A stretch of DNA of 64,000 nucleotides from Magnetovibrio sp. (GTDB taxonomy: Bacteria; Pseudomonadota; Alphaproteobacteria; Rhodospirillales; Magnetovibrionaceae): contig NZ_DATCTF010000011.1 in the NCBI RefSeq assembly GCF_036568125.1, positions 124,001 to 188,000 of the forward strand, given 5' to 3'. The position numbers were made by a program, and so were the translations under genes. Shown piece after piece: positions 14,559-34,557 of this stretch. Under the pieces are notes generated by a model. The model saw nothing but the letters and a program-made list of their open reading frames with translations. It did not search any database and was not told the DNA's origin. Each line of letters opens with the position of its first letter. The stretch's first letter is position 1.

Positions 14559-15722
14559 CTACAGGCCGATCCGCCCGGCGCGCCATGTGAAGAAAATGCC
14601 GCTGGGCTTGGCTGCGGGAAGCTCAACTTTCTGCGCGAAGCTGGCGGTGTCGAGGACCTTGATGACGTCCAGATCGCGCACGCTCATCCACACCTCTTCA
14701 CCACGCGGGGTGAACTCCATGTGCAACACGCCCTTGCCGGGGGTCAACGTTTGGATGATCTGCTGTGACTGGGTGTCGATCACCTGAATGGTGTCGTTGA
14801 GGGGAAAGGCGAAATTCACCCACACCTGGCGGCCGTCGGGTTGGGCCATCACGAACACCGGCTGACCGTGAGCGGGAATGCGCCCGACCTCTTTCCAGGT
14901 GTTCGTATCCACCACCAGAACTTCATGACGCCCGACGGCGGGCACGAACGCCTTGTCGCCGGCAATCGCCCAACCTTCGAGATGGGGCATCTTGTAGACC
15001 GGCAGTTTTTCTTCACCGCGGCCATACCCGTCGAGAATGCGCCGTGGGCCCTTGTCGACGTTCCACAGGTCCACCAGAACCATGCCGTCTTCGCCGAACA
15101 GACCGGCGATGTAATAGCGTCCGTCCGGCGTCACCAGCGCGTCATAAGGTTGCGAACCTACGTCGGGAAATTTGGTGATCTTGGGCGTCGCTGGGTCGCC
15201 CATATCCGCGACCCAAATCTCGCCCGCATCGTACAGCGAAAAAACGAAGCGGTTGCCCGGCGCATCGACCAAGCCGACGGTTTTCGAACCGGTGGGAATG
15301 TCGGCAACCAAATCCAGCGTTTGCGCGTCGAATACCTTAACCCCACCGGGTTCGTAATTCGACACCGCGACCAAACGGCCATCTTGCGAGATCGCTCCGC
15401 CGATGGAGTTGCCGCCTTGAATAACACGTTTCACCACCTTGGCGGTGAGGATATCGACCTTGCTCAACCCGCCGTCACGACCGAACACGAAAGCGTATCT
15501 GGCATCGCGCGAATACACCACCGAAGCGTGACTGAGATCGCCTAAACCCTCGACACGTGCCAACTGGCTGCGCGCGGTGTTTTCCACCACCAACAGCGAG
15601 CCGCTGGCGCGTTCGATCACCACCCCCATGTCACCGGTACCGCGCAGTTCACCCGCTTGCGCCGAAATCACCGTCGCCATCGCGACCAGCATTCCGGCTG
15701 TTAAATGCGCCCACAATTTCAT
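14559..15722 (-). CDS. nirF: NirF, periplasmic heme d1 biosynthesis protein
   Basis: Periplasmic d1-type propeller protein needed for heme d1 assembly, thought to act on a late precursor before NirN. It has an N-terminal signal peptide (residues 1-23, ending AQA-G) without a lipobox cysteine, so it is predicted to be soluble and not the lipoprotein form known from Pseudomonas. No CxxCH is present. Repeats typical of the NirS/NirN/NirF propeller run through residues 30-380. At 387 residues it is normal for NirF. The ATG overlaps the nirC stop by 4 bp (ATGA). Confidence 0.9.
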   Translation of the reverse strand: MKLWAHLTAGMLVAMATVISAQAGELRGTGDMGVVIERASGSLLVVENTARSQLARVEGLGDLSHASVVYSRDARYAFVFGRDGGLSKVDILTAKVVKRVIQGGNSIGGAISQDGRLVAVSNYEPGGVKVFDAQTLDLVADIPTGSKTVGLVDAPGNRFVFSLYDAGEIWVADMGDPATPKITKFPDVGSQPYDALVTPDGRYYIAGLFGEDGMVLVDLWNVDKGPRRILDGYGRGEEKLPVYKMPHLEGWAIAGDKAFVPAVGRHEVLVVDTNTWKEVGRIPAHGQPVFVMAQPDGRQVWVNFAFPLNDTIQVIDTQSQQIIQTLTPGKGVLHMEFTPRGEEVWMSVRDLDVIKVLDTASFAQKVELPAAKPSGIFFTWRAGRIGL

Positions 15723-16942: not shown

Positions 16943-16962
16943 TTATTGACGCCAGTCAATAA
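16943..16962 (-). promoter_or_regulatory. Fnr/Dnr-type box and promoter for the nirE operon
   Basis: Perfect 8-bp inverted repeat TTATTGAC-N4-GTCAATAA. The core TTGAC-N4-GTCAA matches the Dnr/Nnr variant of the FNR site. Read on the minus strand, a CATATT element at 16918-16923 falls at the -10 position if the box centre (16952.5) is at -41.5, which predicts a start site near 16911, about 25 bases before the nirE ATG. Spacing and symmetry are seen directly; activation is inference. Confidence 0.82.
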
Positions 16963-17086: not shown

Positions 17087-17100
17087 TTGACACTCGTCAA
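17087..17100 (+). promoter_or_regulatory. Fnr/Dnr-type box and promoter for nirS
   Basis: Perfect inverted repeat TTGAC-N4-GTCAA. A GATAAT element at 17124-17129 (five of six matches to TATAAT) lies where a -10 box should be if the palindrome is centred at about -42, predicting a start site near 17136 and a leader of about 125 bases before nirS. The region upstream of it carries a pyrimidine run. This is the expected class II layout for an Fnr/Dnr-activated promoter. Confidence 0.83.
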
Positions 17101-17260
17101 GGTGGCCGATCCGCCAAGCACCCGATAATGACGCCAGCGCACGGAATTTGCCGAGCGTTGCGTGTCGTGAGCATAGATAAATCAGCTCTCGATTCGGAGG
17201 GAAACACACTTTGGGGCGTAATTTCGTGTGGGCCGTCTCAATTTGGACAGGGGTAAATCA

Positions 17261-18868
17261 ATGAAGTTGGCATTGTCCCTTTCAGCCATAAGTATGGCGG
17301 CAGGCGCAGTCCTGTTGGGTTCGGGGGGAGCCTTGGCTGCGGAGCCGACACTCTCCGAGAAGGATTTCGAGGAAGCTAAGGTTTTGTATTTCCAGCGTTG
17401 TGCTGGTTGCCACGGTGTCCTTCGCAAGGGTGCTACGGGCAAAAACCTCGAACCGGAAAACACCAAAAAACTCGGGCAGAAGCGGCTTGAGAAGATCATC
17501 ACGCTCGGCACCGAAGGCGGTATGAACAATTTTGACGATACCTTCAGCAAAGAAGAGATCGCGAAGTTGGCCACCTACATCCAAATGGATGTTCCGCCGC
17601 CGGCTGAAATGTCTTTGGCCGAGATGAAAAAACGCTGGAAAGTGTACATCAAGCCCGAAGAATACCCAACCAAACCCATGCACGGGCGTAATTGGCAGAA
17701 CTTCTTCGTGGTTATTTTGCGCGATGCCGGCAAAATGGGCATCATCGACGGCGATACCAAGGAAATCGTCACCAAGGTCAACACCGGCTATGCGGTGCAC
17801 GTGACCAAGGAATCGTCCGATGGGCGTTTCTGGTACACCCAAGGTCGCGACGGAAAAATGACCAAAATCGATTTGTGGATGGACCCGCCGCAGGTGGTTG
17901 CCGAAACACAGATCGCATCCGATGCCCGTGACGTCGCCGTTTCCCACTACGGGGAATGGAAAGACAAATACGTGATCGGTGGCGGGTATTGGCCGCCGCA
18001 CTTCGTGATCCTCGACGCCGTGACCATGGAGCCGCTGAAAGTGGTTTCCACCCGCGGCATCAACGTGGATGGCGAATACGTCAACGAAGCCCGCGTTGCG
18101 GCCGTTTACAATACGCCCAACGCACCGACGTGGATCGTCGCGGTTAAGGAACTCGGCCAGCTTTGGCAGGTCGATTATTCCGATCTCGACAACCTGCGCA
18201 TCGAGCAGATCAACTCTCACAAGTTCCTGCACGATGGCTTCTTCGATCCGACCCAGAAGTATTTCCAAATCGCTGCAAACGCGTCGAACCGTATGGAAGT
18301 GATGGATTCCGAATCTCGTAAATTCGTCGCTTCGATCGAAACCGGCACCAAGCCGCACCCGGGACCGGGCGCGAACTGGGTCGATCCGAAATGCGGCCCG
18401 GTGGGCGGCACGGTTCACTTGGGCGAAGGCAAGGTCACCGTTTGGGGCAACGATCCCAAGGGCCATCCCGACAACGCCTGGAAGATCTGCTACAAGACGG
18501 CAACCGACGGGCCGGGGCTGTTCATTCGCACGCACCCGAACTCGCCGTACGTCTTCGCCGATCAGACCTTGCATCCCGATCCTGATGTTCAACAGTCCAT
18601 CAAGGTCATCGACAAGAAGACCGGCAAGGTCGTCAAAACCATCCGTGTGACGGACATCGAAAAGTCCGTGGCCGTGCACAGCGAATTCAACCAAGACGGT
18701 TCCGAAGTTTGGGTTTCCGTTTGGGTTCGCGGCGGCAAGAAGACTTGGCTGGATGGTCACATCGTCGTCTACGATTCCACAACCCTCGAGAAGAAGGCTG
18801 TGATCAAGGGCCTCGAGACGCCGACAGGCAAGTTCAATGTGTACAATCGCGTACATCATAACACCTAA
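17261..18868 (+). CDS. nirS: cytochrome cd1 nitrite reductase
   Basis: Periplasmic homodimeric enzyme that reduces nitrite to NO. The ATG at 17261 gives a Sec signal peptide (residues 1-27, GALAA-E) and has a GGACAGGGG ribosome site; the frame extends upstream but without signal-peptide logic. The c-heme site CAGCH is at residues 47-51, followed by the eight-bladed d1 propeller (about 140-535). The YAVHV segment supplies the proximal d1 ligand, and NSHKFLHDGFF and GTKPHPGPG hold the two active-site histidines of known cd1 enzymes. At 535 residues it is of slightly shorter or normal length. It is divergent from the d1 operon, with an Fnr/Dnr box about 160 bp upstream, and heads nirS-nirT-cytochromes-cupredoxin. 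Confidence 0.97.
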   Translation: MKLALSLSAISMAAGAVLLGSGGALAAEPTLSEKDFEEAKVLYFQRCAGCHGVLRKGATGKNLEPENTKKLGQKRLEKIITLGTEGGMNNFDDTFSKEEIAKLATYIQMDVPPPAEMSLAEMKKRWKVYIKPEEYPTKPMHGRNWQNFFVVILRDAGKMGIIDGDTKEIVTKVNTGYAVHVTKESSDGRFWYTQGRDGKMTKIDLWMDPPQVVAETQIASDARDVAVSHYGEWKDKYVIGGGYWPPHFVILDAVTMEPLKVVSTRGINVDGEYVNEARVAAVYNTPNAPTWIVAVKELGQLWQVDYSDLDNLRIEQINSHKFLHDGFFDPTQKYFQIAANASNRMEVMDSESRKFVASIETGTKPHPGPGANWVDPKCGPVGGTVHLGEGKVTVWGNDPKGHPDNAWKICYKTATDGPGLFIRTHPNSPYVFADQTLHPDPDVQQSIKVIDKKTGKVVKTIRVTDIEKSVAVHSEFNQDGSEVWVSVWVRGGKKTWLDGHIVVYDSTTLEKKAVIKGLETPTGKFNVYNRVHHNT

Positions 18869-22066: not shown

Positions 22067-22080
22067 TTGATCAAAATCAA
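22067..22080 (+). promoter_or_regulatory. FNR box and promoter for bacteriohemerythrin
   Basis: Perfect consensus TTGAT-N4-ATCAA, centred 81 bp before the GTG start. A TACACT element at 22103-22108 is placed correctly for a -10 box if the site is at -41.5, predicting a start near 22115. Half-sites are TTGAT here, while the nir and reductase boxes use TTGAC, so a different or broader Crp/Fnr regulator may act here. Confidence 0.8.
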
Positions 22081-22154: not shown

Positions 22155-22556
22155 GTGGCTTTAATCAAATGGGATGACACCATGAAGGTCGGCATACCGT
22201 CTGTCGATCACGAACACGAAACATTGATCGGCGAAATCAACGCCTTGGGAGACGTGATAACGGGCGACATGATCAAACATGCCGAAGTCACGGCTCTGCT
22301 CGGTAAAATCCATGCCCAGATCGAAGCGCACTTCGCATTGGAAGAAAAGATCATGCTCGACAGGGGCTACACCGGCTATCATGCCCACAAGGAAGATCAC
22401 GACCGCCTGCTCGAAGACATCCGCGACATCATGGATGACACGCTCAACGCCGATCCCAAAGACATCTCCGACACCCTGGGCGCGCGTCTCGACACCTGGT
22501 TCTCAGAGCACTTCCGCACCTTGGACCGTAGCTTCCATACCTTTTTGGAACACTGA
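22155..22556 (+). CDS. bacteriohemerythrin
   Basis: Single-domain hemerythrin of 133 residues; binds O2, and possibly NO, at a non-heme di-iron site in the cytoplasm. All ligands can be seen: His21 (VDHEHE), His59 and Glu63 (HFALEE), His78 and His82 (HKEDHD), His119 and Asp124 (HFRTLD). The GTG start follows a GAGGAG ribosome site and gives the classic MALIKWDD N-terminus. It has its own FNR-box promoter, is convergent with the reductase operon (2-bp gap), and is the first of two hemerythrin genes flanking that operon. A role in scavenging O2 or NO during denitrification is likely from context. Confidence 0.93.
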   Translation: MALIKWDDTMKVGIPSVDHEHETLIGEINALGDVITGDMIKHAEVTALLGKIHAQIEAHFALEEKIMLDRGYTGYHAHKEDHDRLLEDIRDIMDDTLNADPKDISDTLGARLDTWFSEHFRTLDRSFHTFLEH

Positions 22557-22558
22557 AC

Positions 22559-23290
22559 TTATTTGAAGTAGAAAACGTGGTCGTTTTCGTGAAAGCCGAC
22601 GATCAGGTTTTGCGTCGGCTTCACGTCGACGATTGCGCTCTGTTCGTGGGTGTAGGGTTTGCTCGGATCACCGTCGTTCATGCGTACGGTCATCCGGTGG
22701 GTTCCCGCCGCGATGAAAAACTTTTTGTAAAAACTCGACGCGCCATCGCTACGCAGCCCCGTGGCTTTCGCTTCACCCTTGAAAAGCAGCTCGCCGTCCA
22801 TTTCCAATTCAAGCAGAACCGCTGAGCGTTCGCGCGAGCATTTCATCTTCGCACGCATGTTCGGCGGCAAGGCCGCCAGCTCTTCCTTGGTGCGTTTGAC
22901 GCAGGCCTCGACACGCTGGCCTGGATGACTCAAATTGAGCTTAATCTGCGCTTCCCCTGCACCCAAGTAGCTGTACGTGGGATACGCCGAAAACACCCCG
23001 ACCACCGCCATGAACAATCCATAAACCGCCGCTTGGGCGATCCAGTACTTAGACGGCATGGTGGCGGCGTGGGCTTCGCGCTGGCGGGTGCCGGCCTTGG
23101 CTTCGCGGCGCTTGTTGATGCGCTCCAGATGCTCGCGTTGAAGACGTTTACGCTCGCGTTTTTCCTCATCGACGCGAAAGAGGTTTTTGACGCCGATGTG
23201 CCAAACGAATGAAAAGTAGATCGGAGCGAACACCGCGAACGGCACCGCATAGAACCACACCGCATTTTCGCCATCGAAGAAATCAAACAT
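22559..23290 (-). CDS. unknown inner-membrane protein of the reductase operon
   Basis: A 243-residue protein I do not recognise. The ATG at 23290 overlaps the upstream gene by 8 bp and begins directly with MFDFFDGENAVWFYAVPFA. Layout: transmembrane helix about 11-31, a highly charged Glu/Arg/Lys-rich and probably helical cytoplasmic segment 35-80, a second helix 82-104, then a periplasmic domain of about 140 residues, rich in beta-type sequence, that ends HENDHVFYFK. Cysteines are few and there is no heme or Fe-S motif. It is the last gene of the operon for the heme-copper enzyme, so an assembly or accessory role is possible, but this is inference. Confidence 0.75.
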   Translation of the reverse strand: MFDFFDGENAVWFYAVPFAVFAPIYFSFVWHIGVKNLFRVDEEKRERKRLQREHLERINKRREAKAGTRQREAHAATMPSKYWIAQAAVYGLFMAVVGVFSAYPTYSYLGAGEAQIKLNLSHPGQRVEACVKRTKEELAALPPNMRAKMKCSRERSAVLLELEMDGELLFKGEAKATGLRSDGASSFYKKFFIAAGTHRMTVRMNDGDPSKPYTHEQSAIVDVKPTQNLIVGFHENDHVFYFK

Positions 23291-24815
23291 CAGCGCTCTC
23301 CCCACCCGGCAGCGCGTCAAGGTCAGCCTTGAACTCGGCCACAGTGTCGTGCAGCAACTCAACATCCAGCGGCGATGCCCACAAGGTGCGGATACGCTCA
23401 CGCGGGACGCGTTTTCTCAAATACGGATCACGCCGCCCTTCCAAACGGTCTTGCATCCACTGCACCCCATAGCGGAATCGGCAGCCGCAATCGGGACAAC
23501 CGGCGATCAACACCCCTTTGGCGCCTTGGCTGATCATGTAATCAATGAACGACGGCGGCATATGCGATACGCACGGCAGCACCACCGCTGCCGTACCTTT
23601 GATGCCATCGACCTTTTGGCCATGATCGCATCCGACCAGAACGATGCCATCGCTGGCATTTTGCAACGCTTCATCGACCGATTTGCGCATCGCCTTCAAC
23701 GGCAAATTCACAAGGTCAATGCCGGTGATAAGTTCATCCTCGGCGCGAAACGGCGTCGAGGTCGGGCACGCGCCGACACAAATTCCGCAACGCGTACACA
23801 TAGACGGTTCGACCACGGCCTGTTGCTCGTAGGGCAAGCCGTCGGTACGCGGCACCATGGTGATCGCGCCATAAGGACAGTCTTCGTAACAGCGCTTACA
23901 GCCGTTGCACATATCCAAGGTCACCACGGCGGCCTTGGGCAACTTCATCGGCGGCAACCACGGCATGATCGCCAGAAACAACGAACCGCCGATGGCCAGC
24001 CCCCACAACACCGCAGGCCCCCAAATGTCGAACAGCGGATAAAAGGCCATGTAAAACCAATCGAGCGCCAAATCGGTCGGTATCACGTCCAAGTTCGCTT
24101 TGGCGTGACTGATGGCAGGCTGAACGAGGGACAGAACCGTCAGCGCCACGGTCGTGCCGATGGCCAGACCGCGCGGCGGGTTGATCTTCGGCTGGGTGAC
24201 GCGGATCACGTGGATCCACATCATGAACAGCAAAAACAGCGGTGCGAAAATGTGCATAAACACCAGCAGCGTGAAGAACCGATCGGTGAGCGATCCTTCG
24301 GCCAAGAAGTTACTGGCGACGGGTTTCCCGAAAATGCCCAACCAGTCAATCCATTCCATCGAACCGATGGCGACGTACTGCGCCAGTTCGTCCCATACCA
24401 GCCAGTAGCCAGACAGGCCCGACACATACAAAAGCCAAATCACCGGCACGCCGGTGAACCACGCATACCAGCGAACCCCGCGATAGCGATCGAACGACCA
24501 TTCACGCACCAGATGCAGCGCCATCGTCAACACCATGCCATCAGACGAATAACGATGCAGGCTGCGCATGACGCCGCCGAACCACCACTGATCGTTGGTC
24601 AGGTATTCAACCGATTCATACGCACCGTTCACCGAGGTTTCAAAAAACACGTACAACACGATGCCGGTGATGGCCGCGACGAAGAACAGGTAAAACGCTA
24701 ACGTGCCCAACTGACGCATGGGGTTCCACTCGGGCCCGAAAGCCTGGTCAAATCCCTTTTCAGCTCGCAAAAAGAAATTTTGGATAAAAATACGGATCGA
24801 GGTGAGAGCGTTCAC
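23283..24815 (-). CDS. cytochrome b / 2x[4Fe-4S] ferredoxin / MvhD-domain fusion
   Basis: A 510-residue redox fusion. Residues 1-290 form a cytochrome b N-terminal-type membrane domain with histidine pairs His87/His188 and His101/His202, spaced as in bc-type cytochromes, so two b-hemes are predicted. Residues 300-352 are a bacterial ferredoxin with two complete clusters, C303-x2-C306-x2-C309-x3-C313P and C340-x2-C343-x2-C346-x3-C350P. Residues 390-460 resemble the delta subunit of F420-non-reducing hydrogenase (MvhD/FlpD): VGCDHG, LPC (Cys415) and GVLIAGCPDCGCRFRYG (Cys440, 443, 445). The domain order suggests electron flow between a membrane quinol site and a soluble partner. It lies between SCO and an unknown membrane gene in the reductase operon. 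Direction of electron flow and partner are unknown. Confidence 0.85.
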   Translation of the reverse strand: MNALTSIRIFIQNFFLRAEKGFDQAFGPEWNPMRQLGTLAFYLFFVAAITGIVLYVFFETSVNGAYESVEYLTNDQWWFGGVMRSLHRYSSDGMVLTMALHLVREWSFDRYRGVRWYAWFTGVPVIWLLYVSGLSGYWLVWDELAQYVAIGSMEWIDWLGIFGKPVASNFLAEGSLTDRFFTLLVFMHIFAPLFLLFMMWIHVIRVTQPKINPPRGLAIGTTVALTVLSLVQPAISHAKANLDVIPTDLALDWFYMAFYPLFDIWGPAVLWGLAIGGSLFLAIMPWLPPMKLPKAAVVTLDMCNGCKRCYEDCPYGAITMVPRTDGLPYEQQAVVEPSMCTRCGICVGACPTSTPFRAEDELITGIDLVNLPLKAMRKSVDEALQNASDGIVLVGCDHGQKVDGIKGTAAVVLPCVSHMPPSFIDYMISQGAKGVLIAGCPDCGCRFRYGVQWMQDRLEGRRDPYLRKRVPRERIRTLWASPLDVELLHDTVAEFKADLDALPGGESADV

Positions 24816-24860
24816 GGCCAGGGTCTTCTTCTATTTTATGGTTTTTCGGGGATGCTTTTT

Positions 24861-25760
24861 TCAAAGACTGGGACGAATATTCGCACGCCCATGCGTGAGC
24901 AGGCGACGCTTTCGTTTGCGGTCTTGCCACACCCAATTGAGCAAAAATGCAATCATCGAAAGGATGATGGTGCCGCCCACGATCAGACGGAAGAATATCG
25001 CATATTCGAAGCGGTACTGATCAGCAACCGGATCGTAGATGGTGCAAAACAGCCGTACTTTGTTAACCAGGTCGCCAAGGCTGGCGAACGGCGTCTCGGT
25101 GCCGAAGGTTAAGTTTTTCAAAGGTTCGACGAAATGCGGGGTTTCGAAGCTTTCGCCATAAATCTGTCTGTAGACCACGCCGTTCTTATCCAAGATGGTG
25201 GTCTGGGTCAGATGATCGAATCCTTTTGGCGATTCGAAAAACTGAAAACCCAAATCCTCGCTAAGCCCGGTGACGGACATCAAGTCGCCGCTCAAAAAGC
25301 GCCAGTGGTCGCTGATCGGCACGCCGTACTTGGCGGCGAAACTTTTCATCCGCACGGGGTTGTCTTCGGCAATGTCGAAGCCGATGGTGACGATATTGTA
25401 GCTATCGTCACCCAACGCATCGCGCGCGGTTTCATCGACGCTTTCCAAGGTTGAGGTGATCACCGGACAGACATCCGCACAACTGGAATAGATCAGCGAA
25501 ATCACCAACGGTTTACCGCGAAAATCCGACAGTTTGACCCGATGGCCAGCGGTGTCACGAAAACTGTAATCGCCGACCTCTCGTCCAATCGCTGCTTGCG
25601 AAATGGCCAGCGCTTTCTTTTCATCCAATGCGCCCGGCTCGGCGTTGGATAACGTCGGCTGGGCGTGCGCCTCGAACGACGCCGCCACGCCCGCCATCAT
25701 GAGCGTCGTGGCGAACATCGTGCAAACTCTACGCAACAGGGTCATGTTTGTTTCGATCAT
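24861..25760 (-). CDS. SCO1/SenC-family copper chaperone, membrane-anchored
   Basis: Delivers copper to the CuA centre of heme-copper enzymes. A signal-like N-terminus (to about residue 33) leads into a thioredoxin-fold SCO domain with the copper site CADVC (Cys94, Cys98) and the partner His183 in GFDHLTQ. Unlike most SCO proteins, a second transmembrane helix follows at the C-terminus (about residues 262-284, IVGGTIILSMIAFLLNWVW), with a basic cytoplasmic tail. It is 299 residues, longer than typical SCO (about 200). Downstream of a CuA-containing subunit II and subunit I it almost certainly matures that enzyme. The combination of reductase genes with a senC gene resembles the norSY-senC arrangement known in ammonia oxidisers. 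Confidence 0.9.
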   Translation of the reverse strand: MIETNMTLLRRVCTMFATTLMMAGVAASFEAHAQPTLSNAEPGALDEKKALAISQAAIGREVGDYSFRDTAGHRVKLSDFRGKPLVISLIYSSCADVCPVITSTLESVDETARDALGDDSYNIVTIGFDIAEDNPVRMKSFAAKYGVPISDHWRFLSGDLMSVTGLSEDLGFQFFESPKGFDHLTQTTILDKNGVVYRQIYGESFETPHFVEPLKNLTFGTETPFASLGDLVNKVRLFCTIYDPVADQYRFEYAIFFRLIVGGTIILSMIAFLLNWVWQDRKRKRRLLTHGRANIRPSL

Positions 25761-25827
25761 CAGGCTTCACCCACAAGAGCCTACCCACAAGACGAAAAGG
25801 CCAAGGACACACAGGCCCGGTAAGAAA

Positions 25828-25867
25828 GGGGCGGATGCCATTCTGTGGGCATCGTAGCATCCGCCCC
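25828..25867 (-). terminator. strong hairpin between subunit I and SCO genes
   Basis: Perfect 11-bp inverted repeat: on the minus strand GGGGCGGATGC, an 18-base loop, then GCATCCGCCCC and TTTCTTA. It has the shape of an intrinsic terminator with a short U-rich end. Placed between two genes of the same operon it may attenuate, so that the accessory genes are made in lower amounts than the enzyme subunits. Confidence 0.65.
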
Positions 25868-25897
25868 CCCGGAGCACCCTCGAAAGAGTGCTTGCGG

Positions 25898-27589
25898 TTA
25901 GCTCAGTCCCCACACACTCGCCAAGTATTTCCAGTTGACGAAGTAGTAGAGGACGAAAGCTGTCAGGAACACCAGCGCCAGCACGAAGGTTCCGGGAACC
26001 TCCATGGTTCCGGCGCTGCCGTATTCGGTTGCAGCACCGCTGATGGCCGGTTCCGGCGTCGACGTTTCCGCAGCCGCGGGCGCCGGTACCTTGGCTTTAC
26101 CCCACAGCAACGTGCCGACCATGTTGAGGATGAAGATACCCCCACCGACACCGCCGATCACACCGGAGATGCCTGCCAGCCCCATCATCAGATAGGCCGA
26201 TTCTGGGAACTCGTGGACCATCATGGCATCAGCAAACGAGATGTCCCAGTGACGACGGGGAACGCCCAGCGTGCCCGCGCCCATCATGAAGGTCGAAGCC
26301 AAACCCATGCCGATACCGAAAATATACGGCTGCCATTTGGCGAGACCCGGGAACACCAGTTCCTTTTGCCACAACACCGGCACCAGCCAGTAGCTCAGCG
26401 CCATGAACGCCAAGGTCGTACCGACCACGACGGTGCCGTGGAAGTGGCCTGGAACGTACATGGTGTTGTGCACGATGATGTTGAGCTGTTCGGTGCCCAT
26501 CATCACGCCCGTGATGCCGCCCAAGAAGCCGAACATCACCACCGACAAAGCAAACCCGGAGAACACCGGATTACCCCACGGCGCTTTGCGCAGCCACTCG
26601 AACATACCCCGGTTGAAGCCTTTTTTGCGTTGTGCGGCTTCGACCGCGCCCGGAACCGTAAGGCCATGCAACATGGAACCCAAAACGGCGAGATACAGAG
26701 CGTAGGACGTATTGAAGATCTTCCATTCTGAGCTCATGCCCGGATCAACCAGAATGTGGTGAGCCGAAGCCAGTTGCAGGAACAGAATGTAGAACAGGAA
26801 CGCCGTACGGCTGACCTTTTCCGACAACGGTTGAGCGTTGAACAAGATCGCCGCGATCGCGTACCAGCACGAGATTTGTGCCGCCACGTTGATCTGCTGC
26901 GACGAGTGTCCCATACCCCACCAGATGACGCGATACATCAAGGTGTCGATGTTGGCGATGAAGCCCATGGACCAGAACATGGTCGGAACCAAAATCACCG
27001 CGCCCGCCAAGATGGTGAACACCGCGATGATCGCCGCCGTCATGGCGCCGAAGGTCACCAACGGGATCGAGCCCTCATAGGTCTTGTCACGCTTGGCGAT
27101 ATACAGCGTGGCGAAAAACACCAAGCACCCCAGCAGCGCACCCACGGCAAACAAAATGATGCCGAGGTAGAAGTGCGGCGCCGCCATCATCGGGACGTAC
27201 GACGTGAACATCACGCTGCTTTCGCCTTGCAGAACGGCGACGTTGGTGATCGCCGCGCCGACCAGCATCAAAATGTATTGAAGCCAACCGACCCAAGGGA
27301 GCGCCAAACGCGTCTTGAGCAAAATGGACGATGTAAAATACAGCAACGCCATTTCAAAGAAGATGATCCACACCAGCAAGACGTCCAGTCCGTGCGCGGT
27401 GAGAGCAAGATAAAACAAATCGGGATCCAGCAGGTGGACGGCGGGCCAGCGCGTCAGCGCGACCAGAATGCCGAACAAGCCGCCGACCAGCAGAAACACA
27501 ACGGCCGTAACCGCATTCCACTTGATCAGCTTGTCTGCCGCTAGATCGATTGCGAACCCGGTGTCCGGGCAAGTTCTAAATTCAGCCAT
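25898..27589 (-). CDS. heme-copper subunit I lacking the cross-link Tyr; probable nitric oxide reductase catalytic subunit
   Basis: Polytopic 563-residue protein with about 13 helices. The metal ligands are complete: His66 (TAHG) and His384 for the low-spin heme, His382 (PGHFHG) for the high-spin heme, and His228, His277 and His278 for CuB. In oxygen reductases of types A and B the helix VI sequence is GH-x3-Y; here it is GHSSQQ, so the position of the cross-linked tyrosine (His+4) is Gln232. The helix VII position used by cbb3 enzymes (six residues before the HH pair) is Leu271. With no candidate cross-link tyrosine, O2 reduction is unlikely. The sequence around VHNTMYVPGHFHGT is closest in style to B-type enzymes, and non-canonical NO reductases (sNOR, eNOR and related groups) show this combination. 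NO to N2O is the proposed reaction. It follows the CuA subunit after 10 bp. Confidence 0.85.
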   Translation of the reverse strand: MAEFRTCPDTGFAIDLAADKLIKWNAVTAVVFLLVGGLFGILVALTRWPAVHLLDPDLFYLALTAHGLDVLLVWIIFFEMALLYFTSSILLKTRLALPWVGWLQYILMLVGAAITNVAVLQGESSVMFTSYVPMMAAPHFYLGIILFAVGALLGCLVFFATLYIAKRDKTYEGSIPLVTFGAMTAAIIAVFTILAGAVILVPTMFWSMGFIANIDTLMYRVIWWGMGHSSQQINVAAQISCWYAIAAILFNAQPLSEKVSRTAFLFYILFLQLASAHHILVDPGMSSEWKIFNTSYALYLAVLGSMLHGLTVPGAVEAAQRKKGFNRGMFEWLRKAPWGNPVFSGFALSVVMFGFLGGITGVMMGTEQLNIIVHNTMYVPGHFHGTVVVGTTLAFMALSYWLVPVLWQKELVFPGLAKWQPYIFGIGMGLASTFMMGAGTLGVPRRHWDISFADAMMVHEFPESAYLMMGLAGISGVIGGVGGGIFILNMVGTLLWGKAKVPAPAAAETSTPEPAISGAATEYGSAGTMEVPGTFVLALVFLTAFVLYYFVNWKYLASVWGLS

Positions 27590-27599
27590 GACACGTTCC

Positions 27600-28142
27600 T
27601 CACTTATCGACTACGTGAATTTTGCCGACCATCGTGTGATGGCCAATGCCGCAAAATTCGTTACAGACAACACTGAATTCGCCGGAGCTGGTCGGCGTCA
27701 CCGTCAGCACCATGTCGTATCCAGGATGAACCTGAATGTTGATGTTTTCAGGCTGAAGCGAAAAACCGTGCAGCCAATCGACTGAAGACAGGTGCAGGCG
27801 ATAGGACTGCCCTTTCTCCAATTCCAGAACCGGCCACCATTCCCACAACCGCGCCAACATATAGACGTCGCTGCCTGCAGGCGGATGGACCACCGGAACG
27901 CCGGTATCGCCCTCTTCGCGGACTTTATATTTGGCGGCCATTTCTTCGGTGCGTTGCGCATAAACTTCTGGACGAATTTTATACGCTTCGTTGGAAAGGT
28001 TCTGTTCGCCGTTGATGTGCCAATACGGCATCATGAAAAACATCACCAGCGCCCAAAGCAACGCGATGAAGATCCATAGAACTTCCGATTTCTCAACCGG
28101 CTCGTTCCACCAGATCCGAGACTTTGGAGGTGTAATACCCAT
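27600..28142 (-). CDS. heme-copper enzyme subunit II with intact CuA site
   Basis: Membrane-anchored electron-accepting subunit of 180 residues. One transmembrane helix (residues 21-40) is followed by a periplasmic cupredoxin domain. The binuclear CuA ligands are all present: His125 (DWLHGFS), Cys160, Glu162, Cys164, His168 and Met171 in CNEFCGIGHHTM. The single helix (most A-type subunits II have two) fits a B-type or alternative NOR subunit. CuA implies electrons from a soluble periplasmic cytochrome or cupredoxin. Canonical cNOR subunit NorC instead carries a c-type heme, so this enzyme is not a NorCB. Confidence 0.92.
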   Translation of the reverse strand: MGITPPKSRIWWNEPVEKSEVLWIFIALLWALVMFFMMPYWHINGEQNLSNEAYKIRPEVYAQRTEEMAAKYKVREEGDTGVPVVHPPAGSDVYMLARLWEWWPVLELEKGQSYRLHLSSVDWLHGFSLQPENINIQVHPGYDMVLTVTPTSSGEFSVVCNEFCGIGHHTMVGKIHVVDK

Positions 28143-28160
28143 TTATCCAGTCCCCCCCTC

Positions 28161-28328
28161 TTACGGTGCGACGGGAATGGATACGATCTCCATCACGCCC
28201 CAGATGATGTAAATAACCGTCGGCAATGCGACGCCGAGAAACAGAAGGATGAATGTGGAATCCAATAACTTCTGCATAAACGGGATGCTCTCACCATCCC
28301 CCGCATGTGTACTGTCATGATCTGACAT
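28161..28328 (-). CDS. small single-helix membrane subunit
   Basis: A 55-residue protein that starts MSDHDSTHAG at 28328, behind a GGGAGGA ribosome site; an in-frame upstream ATG at 28343 lacks such a site. One transmembrane helix spans about residues 22-47 (STFILLFLGVALPTVIYIIWGV). It is the first gene of the operon, 18 bp before subunit II. Small single-helix proteins of this type (for example subunit IIa of ba3 oxidase) complete the helix bundle of B-type enzymes whose subunit II has one helix, and that is its most probable role. Confidence 0.75.
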   Translation of the reverse strand: MSDHDSTHAGDGESIPFMQKLLDSTFILLFLGVALPTVIYIIWGVMEIVSIPVAP

Positions 28329-28445: not shown

Positions 28446-28459
28446 TTGACCAAGGTCAA
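28446..28459 (-). promoter_or_regulatory. Dnr/Nnr-type box for the reductase operon
   Basis: Perfect palindrome TTGAC-N4-GTCAA. If centred at -41.5 for minus-strand transcription, the start site is near 28411, with a CGCAAT element at 28418-28423 in the -10 position. It is the proximal site for the operon that begins at 28328. Confidence 0.8.
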
Positions 28460-28469
28460 ATGCCTGTGA

Positions 28470-28483
28470 TTGACGCCCGTCAA
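28470..28483 (+). promoter_or_regulatory. Dnr/Nnr-type box for the divergent hemerythrin gene
   Basis: Second perfect TTGAC-N4-GTCAA, centred 24 bp from the first. In the plus direction a CACAAT element at 28506-28511 fits a -10 box, giving a start near 28518, about 60 bases before the ATG at 28578. The two sites are about two helical turns apart, so two regulator dimers could bind the same DNA face, one per promoter. Confidence 0.8.
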
Positions 28484-28577: not shown

Positions 28578-29159
28578 ATGCAGGCCAAAGCCGATCATCC
28601 GCCGCCTGAAATCTTCGGCGTGCAGATCGAACGTATTCCCGACAATTTATTGTTGGAGCCGATCGAGTACATTTTCGCCGATCATTGCCGCCAGCGCGAC
28701 ATGTGTAGTGCGCTCAAATCGCTAACAAAAATGGACTTGTCCACCGACATCGCCATCGAAGCAGCGGAAATGATCCTCGCGTGCCTGCAGCACGATCTTG
28801 CGCGCCATATCGAAGACGAAGAACGCGACTTGTTTCCTTTGCTGAAGAAACGCGCAAAACCCGAAGACAAATTCGACGACACTTTGCGTTTATTGGGTTC
28901 TGAACATACCCGTGACCGTGAATTGGCGAACGACGTCATCGCAGGTCTCGAGCAGATCGCGCACGCCAAACCGTTGCCCGACCTCTACAGGTTTCGCACC
29001 TCGGCCGAAATGCTCTCGGAAATTCATCTGTCGCATTTGAATTGGGAAAACAACGTGGTGCTGGAACTGGCGCGTCTTAGGCTTACGGACGATGACCAGC
29101 GCAAGATGGCCAAAAGCATGGCCGCCCGGCGCGGCATCACGTTACCGCCATTCGACTGA
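28578..29159 (+). CDS. hemerythrin-domain protein (HHE type)
   Basis: A 193-residue four-helix HHE cation-binding protein, distinct from the short bacteriohemerythrin upstream. Candidate di-iron ligands are His36 (FADHCRQRD), the HIEDEERDLFP segment, HTRDRE and HLNWENN. Proteins of this type next to denitrification genes are proposed to sense or bind NO or O2, or to protect and repair iron centres. It is driven from its own Dnr-type box, divergent from the reductase operon, and is followed by the Crp/Fnr regulator gene on the other strand. The ATG has a GGGGGGTAA ribosome-like site. Confidence 0.83.
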   Translation: MQAKADHPPPEIFGVQIERIPDNLLLEPIEYIFADHCRQRDMCSALKSLTKMDLSTDIAIEAAEMILACLQHDLARHIEDEERDLFPLLKKRAKPEDKFDDTLRLLGSEHTRDRELANDVIAGLEQIAHAKPLPDLYRFRTSAEMLSEIHLSHLNWENNVVLELARLRLTDDDQRKMAKSMAARRGITLPPFD

Positions 29160-29172
29160 ACGTGAGCGTATC

Positions 29173-29925
29173 TCAGCAGCTGAGTGGGCCACTGCTGACC
29201 ATCGCGCGCAAGGCATCCAAATCCTTGATCATAATGTCGTGACCGACACTCTGCACGCCGACACCTTTGAGTTTCGCCAACGCGCGCGAAAAAGTTTCCG
29301 GCTGCATGCCCAGACGCGCCGCAATCAGCGACTTGTCTAACGGCAGCGTGATGCGCGTAGTGCCATTATGAGAATGCGATAAGCCGATGAGGAAATCCGC
29401 CAGGCGTTCAGTGGACGACATCGAACACATCTGATGCAACTTGGTGACATTGCGCCGCATCTGGCGCGACATCGACGCCAACATGTTGAAGGTGAAATTC
29501 ATGTTTTCGCTCAGCTGGCGCATGAGGCTTTCCGCGCTGATCACCAAAAGGCGTACATCCGTGATCGCCACGGCGCTGACGGGAAAAATGCTGCTGTCGA
29601 AGATCGCCGCCTCGGCAAAACTTTCACCCGGCGAGCTCACCGAAATAACCACTTCCTGACCGTTTTCGCTAAGACGGTACAACTTGACCCAACCATCCAT
29701 AACGACAAAAAAACGATCCGCAGGATCGCCTTCCATAAACAATGTCGTGTGATCGGGATAACGTCGGATGGAACTGGTCGCCAGCAACTTGCGTAAATCG
29801 TCAGGCACCAATCCCGAAAACAAATGCACCTGACCTAACCGGCGGATGTCTTCGCGCGTGATGCCGGTGCGCAGTTCAAAGTCGTCCACGTCCTTCGTCA
29901 TTTGCCCCATATCCAAGGTCCCCAT
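29173..29925 (-). CDS. Crp/Fnr-family regulator, Dnr/NnrR-like
   Basis: A 250-residue transcription factor: cyclic-nucleotide-binding-type effector domain (about residues 30-150, with ESFAEAAIF), dimerisation helix, then a winged helix with LGMQPETFSRALAKL. The ExxSR recognition helix matches Fnr and Dnr proteins that bind TTGA half-sites, as found at five places in this window. The N-terminal four-cysteine Fe-S motif of true FNR is missing, so an NO-responsive Dnr/NnrR role is more likely than O2 sensing by an Fe-S cluster. It is convergent with the hemerythrin gene (13-bp gap). Its own promoter lies in the AT-rich region 29926-30151. Confidence 0.9.
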   Translation of the reverse strand: MGTLDMGQMTKDVDDFELRTGITREDIRRLGQVHLFSGLVPDDLRKLLATSSIRRYPDHTTLFMEGDPADRFFVVMDGWVKLYRLSENGQEVVISVSSPGESFAEAAIFDSSIFPVSAVAITDVRLLVISAESLMRQLSENMNFTFNMLASMSRQMRRNVTKLHQMCSMSSTERLADFLIGLSHSHNGTTRITLPLDKSLIAARLGMQPETFSRALAKLKGVGVQSVGHDIMIKDLDALRAMVSSGPLSC

Positions 29926-30792: not shown

Positions 30793-33700
30793 TTATTCTG
30801 CGGCGTCCGCATCCGTATCTGCGCCTGCCTCGACTTTGGGTTCGGTCTTGACCGTGGCCAAAGCTTCGTACACTTGACGGCGATGACGCAGTTCCTCTTC
30901 CAACTTACCCACCAACATGGCGAAGCGTTCAGGGTCCTTACGCTTCACTTGCATGAAGCGGTTTTCCTGCTCCAAAAAGTCGGAGACCGAACGGACCGGT
31001 GCTTTGCTGTCGAGTTGCAACGCCGCCTTGCCTTGTTCCATCAGGCGCGGATCGAAACGATACAAAGGCCAGTACCCACTTTCGACCGCTAGGGTCTGAT
31101 GTTCCAGACTGTGTTCCAACTCGTAGCCGTGTTCGCCGCACGGCGAATTGGCGATGATCAACGACGGACCGTCGAACTGCTCGGCTTCTTGGAACGCCTT
31201 GATGGTCTGCGCATCCTTTGCCCCCAACGCCACCGATGCCACGTAGACGTGACCGTAACTCATTGCGATCAGGCCCAGGTCTTTCTTCGGCAACGCCTTG
31301 CCGGCGCTGGCGAACTTGGCCGCCGCCGCCAACGGCGTCGCTTTGGACTGCTGACCGCCGGTGTTGGAATAGACTTCGGTGTCCAGAACCAAAATGTTGA
31401 CGTTGGCGCCCGACGCCAGAACGTGATCGACGCCGCCAAAGCCGATGTCGTAGGCCCAACCGTCTCCGCCCAAGATCCACAAGGTCTTTTTGACCAAGTG
31501 ATCGGCGATGATGCCTAAGCGTTCTGCCAGCTCACCGTCGATCCCGGCAAGCTTATCCTTCAGCGTTTGCACCCGGTGGCGTTGGGCGAGAATTCCCGCT
31601 TCGTCGGATTGGTCTGATGACAGCAAGGCGTTCACCAACTCATCGTCGCCCAGTTCGCCGCGTAATTGTTCGAGCAATTCCATGGCGATTTGGTGATGCT
31701 TGTCGAGCCCCAAACGAAGACCCAAACCGAACTCGGCGTTGTCTTCGAACAACGAATTCGCCCATGCCGGACCGCGCCCATTGCGGTCGCAGGCATACGG
31801 CGTGGTCGGCAGGTTGCCGCCGTAGATCGACGAGCACCCGGTGGCGTTGGCGATCACCGCACGGTCGCCGTACAGCTGGGTCAGCAACTTGATGTAGGGC
31901 GTTTCTCCACACCCCGAACACGCGCCGGAAAACTCGAACAGCGGTTCGGCGAACTGGGTCATCTTGACGTTGCCGCGCATCAACGTGCGATCCGCTTCGG
32001 GCAGGTCGAGGAAGAACTGAAAGTTTTCGCGTTCCGGCATGCGCAGGGGCGCTTGCGGCTGCATCACAAGGGACAGGCGTTCGGGATTTTTCTTGTCCTT
32101 GCCCGGGCACACCATCACGCACAGCTTGCAACCGGTACAGTCTTCCGATGCAACCTGCACCGTGTATTTGGCATCGTCGCCGAATTCTTTGCCTTTGTAG
32201 TCCATCGATTTGAACGTCGCGGGGGCGCCGTCCAGCGCAGCACCGTCGTAGGCTTTGACCCGGATGGCGGCGTGCGGGCAAACCAGTGCGCACTTGTTGC
32301 ACTGGATGCATAGATCTTCGATCCAAGTGGGAATTTCGGCCGCCAGATTGCGCTTTTCCCACTGCGCGGTGTCGGTCGGCCAAGTGCCGTCCACGGGGAA
32401 CGCGCTAACCGGCAACAGATCGCCATGGCCCGCCAACATCTTGGCGGTAACGTTTTGTACGAAGTCGGGTGCCGCTTCAGACACGATCGGCGGCACGTCG
32501 AAACCGGAGCTGACGGCGGACGGCACATCGATCTGTTCCAGATGCGCCAGGGACGAATCGACCACGGCGAAGTTCATCTCCACCACCTTGCGGCCTTTGG
32601 AACCGTAACTCTTTTCGATGGCGTCCTTAATGTGGCGGATCGATTGATCGTGATCGAGGAAGTCCGATAGCGCGAAGAAACACACCATCATCACGGTGTT
32701 GATGCGCTTGCCCATGCCCGCGTCCGCGGCAATGCGGCGCGCGTCGATGACGTAGAATTTAAGCTCTTTTTCGACGATCGCGCTCTGCACCGAACGGGGT
32801 AGCTTGTCCCAGACCTCGTCCTTGCCATACGGCGCGTTGAGCAAAAACGTTCCGCCTTTGGCGGCGTGGCTGAGCACATCCAGGGTGTCGAGAAAATGGA
32901 ACTGGTGACAGGCGAGAAACTCCGCCTCGTGGATCAGATAGCTGGAGCGGATCGGCTCGGTCGAAAAACGCAAATGCGAAATCGTCACCGCGCCGGCTTT
33001 TTTGGAATCGTAAACGAAGTAGCCCTGCACATAATTGTCGGTGTTGTCGGCGACGATCTTGATGGCGTTTTTGTTCGCACCCACCGTGCCGTCAGAACCA
33101 AGGCCGAAGAACAGCGCCCGATGCATGGTACCCGGCTCGTAACAATTGCCGCATTCGTCCCAATCCAACGACAAACCCGACACGTCGTCGTAAATGCCAA
33201 TGGTGAACGTCGGCTTGGGCGCGGCCTTGCTCAATTCGTCGAACACCGCCTTGGCCATGGATGCGGTGAAGTCCTTGCTCGACAAACCGTAGCGGCCACC
33301 GATGACCTTGATGGCACGGCCCGCACGATTGAGCGCGGCGACCACGTCCAGATACAACGGCTCGCCCAGCGCACCGCTTTCCTTGGTGCGGTCCAGGACC
33401 GCAACGGATTTCACGCTCGCGGGCAGCGCGTCACTGAAGCGCTCCAGGTTGAAAGGCCGATAAAGACGCACCTGCAACACGCCGACCTTTTCTCCGCCAG
33501 TATTGAGTACATCGACGGTTTCGCGCACGGTTTCACCGGACGAGCCCATGATGATGACCACGCGCTGAGCATCCGGCGCGCCGTGGTATTCGTACAGGGC
33601 GTACTTGCGACCCGTGAGGGTTTCGAATTTGGCGAACGCCTGCTCCACAAATCCCGGCACCGCATCGTGATAGATGTTGCGGGCTTCTTGCATTTGAAAG

Positions 33701-34377
33701 AACGTGTCGGGATTTTGGCTGGTGCCGCGCACCACCGGCTTGTCGGGGCTGAGGCCGTGTTTGCGATGCGCCTCGATCAAACCGTCGGGTAGCATCGCCT
33801 GCAGCACATCGTCTTCAAGGTATTCGATTTTGGACACTTCGTGCGAGGTGCGAAAGCCGTCGAAGAAGTGCATGAACGGCACCCGCGAGGCATAGCTCGC
33901 CACTTGGCCGATACAAGCGAAATCCTGAGCCTCCTGCACCGTTCCGCTCGACAGCATCGCCATACCGGTCTGACGACACGCCATCACATCGGAATGATCG
34001 CCGAAAATCGACAGCGCATGCGTGGCCACGGTGCGCGCCGCAACGTGCATGCAAAACGGCAGCAACTCGCCCGCAATCTTGTACAGATTGGGGATCATCA
34101 ACAACAAGCCTTGCGACGACGTGAACGTCGTGGTCAGCGCGCCCGATTGCAAACTGCCGTGAACCGCGCCCGCAGCGCCCGCTTCGGACTGCATCTCGAT
34201 CACTTGTGGAACGGAGCCCCAAATGTTGGTGCGCCCCGCCGCCGACCAGGCGTCTGCATGTTCGCCCATCGCCGATGACGGCGTGATGGGATAGATCGCG
34301 ATAACTTCGTTCATGCGATGGGCAACGGAAGCAACAGCCTCGTTACCATCGACGGCAACCATGCGTTTTTGCGACAT
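30793..34377 (-). CDS. nifJ: pyruvate:ferredoxin (flavodoxin) oxidoreductase
   Basis: Single-chain 1194-residue enzyme that converts pyruvate and CoA to acetyl-CoA and CO2 and reduces ferredoxin or flavodoxin under low oxygen. Domains in order: N-terminal pyruvate-binding region (IAIYPITPSSAMGEHADAW), the gamma-type domain, the ferredoxin insert with two [4Fe-4S] motifs (CIQCNKCALVCP and CTGCKLCVMVCP), and the TPP domain with ATGCSS, GDGWAYDIGFGG and NTGGQ. The ATG at 34377 has a GGAG site about ten bases upstream; a frame extension to 34410 lacks one. The C-terminus is Lys/Glu/Ala-rich. I see no Fnr box in the short upstream region. Confidence 0.96.
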   Translation of the reverse strand: MSQKRMVAVDGNEAVASVAHRMNEVIAIYPITPSSAMGEHADAWSAAGRTNIWGSVPQVIEMQSEAGAAGAVHGSLQSGALTTTFTSSQGLLLMIPNLYKIAGELLPFCMHVAARTVATHALSIFGDHSDVMACRQTGMAMLSSGTVQEAQDFACIGQVASYASRVPFMHFFDGFRTSHEVSKIEYLEDDVLQAMLPDGLIEAHRKHGLSPDKPVVRGTSQNPDTFFQMQEARNIYHDAVPGFVEQAFAKFETLTGRKYALYEYHGAPDAQRVVIIMGSSGETVRETVDVLNTGGEKVGVLQVRLYRPFNLERFSDALPASVKSVAVLDRTKESGALGEPLYLDVVAALNRAGRAIKVIGGRYGLSSKDFTASMAKAVFDELSKAAPKPTFTIGIYDDVSGLSLDWDECGNCYEPGTMHRALFFGLGSDGTVGANKNAIKIVADNTDNYVQGYFVYDSKKAGAVTISHLRFSTEPIRSSYLIHEAEFLACHQFHFLDTLDVLSHAAKGGTFLLNAPYGKDEVWDKLPRSVQSAIVEKELKFYVIDARRIAADAGMGKRINTVMMVCFFALSDFLDHDQSIRHIKDAIEKSYGSKGRKVVEMNFAVVDSSLAHLEQIDVPSAVSSGFDVPPIVSEAAPDFVQNVTAKMLAGHGDLLPVSAFPVDGTWPTDTAQWEKRNLAAEIPTWIEDLCIQCNKCALVCPHAAIRVKAYDGAALDGAPATFKSMDYKGKEFGDDAKYTVQVASEDCTGCKLCVMVCPGKDKKNPERLSLVMQPQAPLRMPERENFQFFLDLPEADRTLMRGNVKMTQFAEPLFEFSGACSGCGETPYIKLLTQLYGDRAVIANATGCSSIYGGNLPTTPYACDRNGRGPAWANSLFEDNAEFGLGLRLGLDKHHQIAMELLEQLRGELGDDELVNALLSSDQSDEAGILAQRHRVQTLKDKLAGIDGELAERLGIIADHLVKKTLWILGGDGWAYDIGFGGVDHVLASGANVNILVLDTEVYSNTGGQQSKATPLAAAAKFASAGKALPKKDLGLIAMSYGHVYVASVALGAKDAQTIKAFQEAEQFDGPSLIIANSPCGEHGYELEHSLEHQTLAVESGYWPLYRFDPRLMEQGKAALQLDSKAPVRSVSDFLEQENRFMQVKRKDPERFAMLVGKLEEELRHRRQVYEALATVKTEPKVEAGADTDADAAE

Positions 34378-34557
34378 GTGATTGAGCTCCGGGGTTATTT
34401 GTACGATCACATTATGTATATTTATGCGCCGACTCGGGGACTTCGCAAATCGTAGCGGAGTTTCGCGCTCACCCAGTCTGTTGAGAGGAACTTTTAGTTT
34501 AATCCAGCGGACCGCTCACGGCTAGTCCTTGCGCCAACCATTTGGCACAAAGGCCGT

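What the first reader, a model, noticed from the sequence alone, without database searches (positions are those of the whole stretch)
22559..28328. Operon for a CuA-containing heme-copper enzyme that is probably a non-canonical nitric oxide reductase
Subunit I keeps all six heme and CuB histidines but has Gln232 at the His+4 position where O2 reductases have the cross-linked Tyr, and no replacement Tyr at the cbb3 position. Subunit II has a perfect CuA site, so this is neither cNOR (NorC heme c) nor qNOR. With two Dnr-type boxes, a neighbouring Dnr-like regulator and an adjacent nirS locus, NO is the natural substrate. Context partly resembles norSY-senC of ammonia oxidisers, but the rest of the operon differs. 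If correct, this organism denitrifies nitrite to N2O with an alternative NOR as its local NO sink.
Basis: partly seen in the sequence, partly recalled or inferred. Interest (0 to 1): 0.85.

Follow-up and report, generated by a model that had tools for sequence, protein, structure and literature searches.

The report
eNOR-type nitric oxide reductase operon
This is a gene cluster for eNOR, an already described alternative enzyme thought to turn nitric oxide into nitrous oxide, here the only such enzyme found in an alphaproteobacterium that also carries genes for the other steps of denitrification; the main unexplained part is a fused heme/iron-sulfur membrane protein that usually accompanies it.

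Summary
Subunit I keeps the six heme/CuB histidines and has Gln232 at His+4, where oxygen reductases have Tyr; subunit II has a CuA motif; nirS and two exact Dnr/FNR-type boxes are near. All 48 close homologs in one alignment keep the Gln, and 25 Gln sequences part from 10 Tyr-type ba3 sequences on one fully supported branch. This Gln is the published marker of eNOR, a known B-type heme-copper family. Two MAGs whose eNOR is described in print (BS150m-G9, SI054_bin61) have relatives in the same clade. The genome (95.24% complete) shows four COX1-type proteins, none a recognisable cNOR or qNOR, plus NapA and a clade II NosZ: probably nitrate to N2, not a stop at N2O. Open: a fused cytochrome b - two [4Fe-4S] - MvhD protein found in 29 of 30 eNOR genomes and in 5 of the 368 others of a 398-genome sample, adjacent in many but not all. 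Activity was not tested here.

The parts
28446..28483 (.). two Dnr/FNR-type boxes (28446-28459, 28470-28483) between this operon and the divergent hemerythrin-like gene
   Evidence: exact matches to TTGAYN4RTCAA; an exact box lies in the stretch upstream of the small subunit in 40 of 76 related loci (36 have none), against 49 of 1520 random windows of the same loci
28161..28328 (-). 55-residue single-helix protein, in the place and of about the size of a ba3 subunit IIa (likeness recalled)
   Evidence: read; homologs in 79 of 83 loci; no Pfam match
27600..28142 (-). subunit II, CuA-binding
   Evidence: CoxB 6e-12, below that model's cut-off, PF00116 at 21.1 bits, just under its cut-off of 22; CuA ligands conserved; in 82 of 83 loci
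25898..27589 (-). subunit I of eNOR, six metal-ligand His, Gln232 in place of the cross-linked Tyr
24861..25760 (-). SCO-type copper chaperone
   Evidence: PF02630 1.7e-13; 79 of 83 loci
23283..24815 (-). fusion: cytochrome b6-like part (H87, H101, H188, H202), two [4Fe-4S] motifs, MvhD/FlpD domain
   Evidence: 75 of 83 loci; in 29 of 30 eNOR genomes of the phylum sample
22559..23290 (-). membrane protein of unknown family, helices then a beta domain
   Evidence: no Pfam or NCBIfam match at the limits used; 66 of 83 loci; model mean pLDDT 90, pTM 0.63; no PDB match at E <= 0.001
22155..22556 (+). bacteriohemerythrin, frequent neighbour
   Evidence: NF033749 90.7 bits, over cut-off; a homolog in 50 of 83 loci; own exact box at 22067-22080
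28578..29159 (+). divergent hemerythrin-like protein, weak match to the RIC/YtfE iron-sulfur repair family
   Evidence: PF01814; TIGR03652 26.4 bits, far below its cut-off of 204.7; only 3 of 83 loci
29173..29925 (-). CRP/FNR-type regulator
   Evidence: PF00027 and PF13545; best NCBIfam match FtrB, below cut-off; a relative in 26 of 83 loci
17228..18868 (+). nirS, cytochrome cd1 nitrite reductase, with boxes at 16946-16959 and 17087-17100
   Evidence: PF02239 388 bits; boxes; a nirS-like gene in 19 of 83 related loci

Best explanation
It is an eNOR: a CuA-type nitric oxide reductase of the B-type heme-copper superfamily. Inferred mechanism: NirS makes NO in the periplasm; a periplasmic electron carrier reduces CuA in subunit II; electrons pass through the low-spin heme to the heme-CuB centre, where two NO are reduced to N2O; protons come through a remnant of the ba3 K-channel. 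SCO loads copper. An NO- or anoxia-sensing CRP/FNR-type regulator switches on nirS and this operon through like boxes. It is probably the cell's only NOR, between NapA/NirS and a clade II NosZ. Shown here: gene content, residues, family placement, boxes, co-occurrence, genome content. Inferred: activity, electron donor, proton path, regulation. The fused cytochrome b-iron-sulfur-MvhD protein and the last gene are accessory; I lean slightly to electron supply over redox-linked assembly for the former and cannot decide.
For: Gln232 in an H-x-x-Q-Q-x-N motif, kept in 48 of 52 rows, the other four being the own aa3 and cbb3 subunits and two COX1-like proteins; 131 of 148 rows have H-x-x-Q-Q. Gln and Tyr groups separate on one branch, 100/100. 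PMC8756737 (passages) identifies eNOR by this Gln and tabulates Tyr for O2 reductases, Asn for sNOR and CuANOR, Asp for gNOR, Glu for cNOR and qNOR. PMC11388526 (passages) counts eNOR among the biochemically characterised NORs. PMC8879329 (passages) equates ba3-a1 with eNOR, cites reported NO reductase activity, and names BS150m-G9 and SI054_bin61 as having it with cd1 nitrite reductase and NosZ; loci L127 and L082 bear those isolate names and lie in the window's 14-row clade (95/95). PMC6431628 (passages) reports SCO in the ba3-a1 operon of magnetospirilli and the missing Tyr. Genome: four COX1 proteins, nirS, NapA, NosZ. Boxes.
Against: No activity was measured. The main biochemical paper on eNOR (Murali et al. 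2024, PNAS) was not held. No named sNOR, bNOR, gNOR or nNOR sequence was in my tree. The genome is 95.24% complete, so a missed cNOR/qNOR is possible, and the four COX1 proteins were sorted by their residues, not by a family scan. nirS lies near in only 19 of 83 loci and 36 of 76 have no exact box; many of these stretches are short.
Confidence: 0.9

Rival explanations
1. It is a degenerate B-type oxygen reductase that still reduces O2 (perhaps incompletely) at low oxygen, NO reduction being secondary.
For: Closest solved relatives are ba3-type oxidases; six His and CuA retained; PMC6431628 cautiously called ba3-a1 a degenerate B family oxidase (passage).
Against: Tyr replaced by Gln in every close homolog; clean split from Tyr enzymes; boxes and nirS setting; the genome already has an aa3-type and a cbb3-type subunit I.
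Confidence: 0.06
2. It belongs to another alternative NOR group of B-type ancestry (sNOR/norSY-senC, bNOR, gNOR or nNOR).
For: SCO/SenC and a CuA subunit in the operon recall norSY-senC.
Against: Published residue markers differ: Asn for sNOR and CuANOR, Asp for gNOR, Gln for eNOR. No reference sequences of these groups were tested; for nNOR I have no residue marker.
Confidence: 0.04
3. About one part only: the fused cytochrome b-iron-sulfur-MvhD protein is an assembly factor (a reductase for copper or for SCO thiols, working somewhat like CcoG of cbb3 oxidases; CcoG recalled, seen only in the listing), not an electron donor.
For: It follows SCO and is followed by a conserved membrane protein; the one Thermus and the one Thermomicrobium stretch examined have the enzyme without it, so catalysis may not need it.
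Against: It keeps the ligands for two b hemes and two [4Fe-4S] clusters and four MvhD-region cysteines in all 33 aligned rows, more redox capacity than an assembly reductase would seem to need.
Confidence: 0.4

Closest known systems
eNOR (earlier label ba3-a1), e.g. MAGs BS150m-G9 and SI054_bin61
   Same: Gln in place of Tyr and same clade; cd1 nitrite reductase and NosZ in those genomes (PMC8879329 passages); L127 and L082 also have the small subunit, subunit II, SCO, the fused protein and the last gene
   Different: no difference of kind found; a further member
eNOR-like enzymes of Thermus thermophilus plasmids and Thermomicrobium roseum
   Same: HGAQQ motif, subunit II next to subunit I, 48% identity
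   Different: no SCO or fused cytochrome b-iron-sulfur-MvhD gene in the one stretch examined of each; the Thermus copy has Lys where the second His of H-x-H is expected
ba3-type oxygen reductases in the PDB (1ehk; 7deg)
   Same: sequence relatives, E 2.7e-39 and 2.5e-40, same metal ligands
   Different: Tyr at His+4 (alignments)
sNOR / norSY-senC of ammonia oxidisers
   Same: CuA subunit and SenC (recalled; norSY papers seen only as a listing)
   Different: Asn, not Gln, at the marker position
MvhD and HdrA electron-transfer proteins of methanogens
   Same: the [4Fe-4S] and MvhD parts of the 23283-24815 protein match HdrA and MvhD of 5odc and HdrA2
   Different: here fused to a cytochrome b6-like membrane part

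Membership tests
eNOR | Gln at the position of the cross-linked Tyr | tested here: met
   Gln232 in the window; 48 of 52 rows and 131 of 148 rows, the others being other types; marker from PMC8756737
eNOR | six heme/CuB His in subunit I and a CuA subunit II | tested here: met
eNOR | one group with described eNORs, outside Tyr oxygen reductases | tested here: met
   25 Gln rows (window included) against 10 Tyr rows, one change, 100/100; includes L127 and L082, which bear the MAG names given in PMC8879329
eNOR | separate from named sNOR, bNOR, gNOR and nNOR sequences in a tree | not tested
   no such named sequences on hand; of 34 genomes matched, 30 are the eNOR genomes and the other four are Tyr-type
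eNOR | one proton channel kept | tested here: inconclusive
   Y243, S305 and T311 align with the same letters in Tyr-type enzymes and are conserved among Gln ones; subunit II E20 is conserved; that these are K-channel positions is recalled
eNOR | reduces NO to N2O | not testable with these tools
   needs the enzyme
cNOR / qNOR | active-site Glu; NorC heme c or fused quinol form | tested here: not met
   Gln at the site; CuA-type subunit instead
sNOR | Asn at the Tyr position | tested here: not met
   Gln232; marker
B-type oxygen reductase | cross-linkable Tyr at His+4 | tested here: not met
   Gln232; no Tyr at the cbb3 position either

The most novel reading that the evidence does not exclude
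In Pseudomonadota, eNOR works with a dedicated electron-input protein: a cytochrome b6-like membrane part fused to two [4Fe-4S] clusters and an MvhD domain that takes low-potential electrons from the cytoplasm (ferredoxin, HdrA- or pyruvate:ferredoxin-type donors) and feeds NO reduction, directly or through quinol. That would be a new route of energy coupling in denitrification.
Probability: 0.15. Interest if true: 0.6.

Novelty: new member of a known kind. Interest (0 to 1): 0.27.

Why it matters
Such genomes can look NOR-less to standard annotation, which labels this subunit I as a cytochrome c oxidase (for example most annotated plasmid hits), so NO-to-N2O capacity is undercounted. The genome shows a plausible nitrate-to-N2 route whose only identified NOR is eNOR. 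The tight genome-level link of eNOR with the cytochrome b-iron-sulfur-MvhD protein gives a specific target for asking how eNOR receives electrons or is assembled.

Tried and rejected
Rejected: cNOR/qNOR, sNOR and oxygen reductase (membership test). The own COX1-like protein L004 as a second NOR: rejected because it lacks the CuB His pair. Paper searches: searches were seen as listings; passages were read in PMC8756737, PMC11388526, PMC8114936, PMC10734462, PMC8879329, PMC12569097 and PMC6431628 and no paper was read whole. Three searches for a published link of eNOR with MvhD/FlpD, cytochrome b, SenC or hemerythrin showed no listing that pointed to this operon; a domain table in PMC8756737 lists one protein with cytochrome b6, ferredoxin-type and FlpD domains (RME88945.1, passage). 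These searches cover open-licence papers only. Fold search of the last operon protein: no match at E <= 0.001. The first tree with A-type, C-type and degenerate rows had very long branches and weak deep forks; in it the Gln group had support 81, and the degenerate L004 and L146 sat next to it with a long-branch warning. It was replaced, from which L001, L002, L004 and L146 were dropped as too divergent and L042, L145 and L148 to save time. In some searches at most three candidates per genome were scored, so absence there is not proof. Of 58 plasmid records matched, 16 were fetched. The box control draws random windows that may overlap the tested stretch, and measures from the open frame's start, not from a known start codon.
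Full report
What is there. On the minus strand, in order of transcription: a 55-residue one-helix protein (28328-28161), subunit II with CuA (28142-27600), subunit I (27589-25898), an SCO protein (25760-24861), a fused cytochrome b-iron-sulfur-MvhD protein (24815-23283) and a membrane protein of no known family (23290-22559). A bacteriohemerythrin lies convergent at 22155-22556; a hemerythrin-like gene, a CRP/FNR-type regulator, and further off nirS flank it.

Active site. H66, H228, H277, H278, H382 and H384 are the metal ligands by alignment, and Gln232 replaces the Tyr found at His+4 in oxygen reductases. In one search, 48 of 52 rows have this Gln. In one search, 131 of 148 loci (some repeat the same genome, and two are the window's own) have H-x-x-Q-Q; the other 17 are Tyr-type oxidases, the own aa3-type and cbb3-type subunits, and degenerate proteins.

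Family. A maximum-likelihood tree of 25 Gln and 10 Tyr sequences separates them on one branch (100/100); the window's nearest rows are a genome of its genus, then Rhodospirillaceae and same-order genomes. Deep forks inside the Gln group are partly unresolved, and the long Thermus and Thermomicrobium rows join each other with a long-branch warning. The Gln is the published sign of eNOR (PMC8756737, passages), and eNOR is counted among characterised NORs (PMC11388526, passages). PMC8879329 (passages) reports eNOR (ba3-a1) with cd1 nitrite reductase and NosZ in MAGs BS150m-G9 and SI054_bin61; it says that among the taxa of its Figure 2b only Minwuia has a classical NOR, and that most taxa of those clades lack a functional NosZ. 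Loci L127 and L082 bear those MAG names and lie in the window's 14-row clade (95/95). PMC8114936 and PMC10734462 (passages) report eNOR in Zetaproteobacteria and Gallionellaceae. The finding is therefore a new member of a known kind.

Host. Best named matches are Rhodospirillales MAGs; some contigs of unnamed same-family genomes have the same lengths as named records (G008:C129 and JANLGW010000072.1; G012:C9 and NVSZ01000005.1; G017:C192 and DAOWFT010000073.1), so the window's genome is inferred to be an alphaproteobacterium of that order.

Distribution. Of 41 genomes (own plus 40 relatives), 19 have an ortholog at 67% identity or more, one of them (G002) only as a 40-residue stretch at a contig end at 95%. 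Two genomes of the genus listed at 100% completeness (G003, G005) show none, so presence is patchy. In a 398-genome phylum sample 31 matched at E <= 1e-40; 30 of these are at least 54% identical, and the other (G360, 29%) is a Tyr-type enzyme.

Operon conservation. In 83 loci (80 and three plasmid records): subunit II 82, small protein 79, SCO 79, fused cytochrome b-iron-sulfur-MvhD protein 75, last protein 66, hemerythrin 50, CRP-type regulator 26, nirS 19; many stretches are short, so these are lower bounds. An exact Dnr/FNR-type box lies in the stretch from 250 bases before to 60 after the small protein's open frame start in 40 of 76 loci with enough sequence, against 49 of 1520 random windows.

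The accessory fusion protein. In the 398 genomes it occurs in 34, in 29 of the 30 with eNOR; 363 have neither. Fisher p = 8e-38 ignores kinship; the five genomes with it alone (G161, G177, G185, G266, G317) belong to family codes that otherwise have both, so missing contigs may explain them; G109 has eNOR without a match. Adjacency is common but not general: of the 29, I entered 17, and 16 of these have both genes on one contig, 14 with gaps of 1.2-2.2 kb and two with 13.6 and 19.0 kb; by the tables, 12 of the 29 have the two genes on different contigs, some of them long, and in the window they are in one operon. So in some genera the two are separate loci. Invariant in the 33-row alignment are H87, H101, H188, H202, the eight cysteines of two [4Fe-4S] motifs, and C396, C415, C440, C445. 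Profile and fold searches match cytochrome b6/bc1 for the membrane part, and profiles match HdrA-type ferredoxin domains and MvhD for the rest; the model has mean pLDDT 78.5. Its role is open.

Genome context. Four COX1 proteins by the Pfam search: an aa3-type, a cbb3-type, this eNOR, and a COX1-like protein without the CuB His pair; the labels rest on my reading of residues. NapA 1516 bits and Sec-type NosZ 900 bits, both over cut-off; no NarG over cut-off. That Sec-type NosZ is clade II follows PMC11388526 (passage). With nirS this suggests nitrate to N2 with eNOR as the only NOR found, in a genome 95.24% complete.

Limits. No activity data; no named reference sequences for the other alternative NORs; Murali et al. 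2024 was not readable here. What I say of eNOR biochemistry comes from papers that cite it.

Noticed in passing
L004 (G000:C2:21256-22626) and L023: A COX1-like protein next to the aa3-type gene and a UbiA/heme O synthase-like ORF (label recalled) keeps heme-ligand His but lacks the CuB His-His pair and has H-V-L-Q-F at the Tyr site; also in a genome of the same genus.
   Followed up: partly
L135:11983-13668: The Thermus thermophilus plasmid relative of eNOR has HFK in place of HFH, so a heme-ligand His is replaced by Lys.
   Followed up: no
genomes G176, G240, G266, G317, G404: Two neighbouring copies of the cytochrome b-iron-sulfur-MvhD protein, one of them in G404 matched only in part.
   Followed up: no
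L134:6181-12927: Defluviimonas sp. carries the eNOR operon on a plasmid, with a heme O synthase gene inside it and a hemerythrin at its end.
   Followed up: partly
window 14559-15722: Second cytochrome d1-domain protein beside nirS (PF02239, 372 bits); the likely label NirF/NirN is recalled.
   Followed up: no
window 30793-34410: Large pyruvate:ferredoxin (flavodoxin) oxidoreductase-like ORF close to the eNOR operon, a possible source of reduced ferredoxin; named from recall, read only.
   Followed up: no
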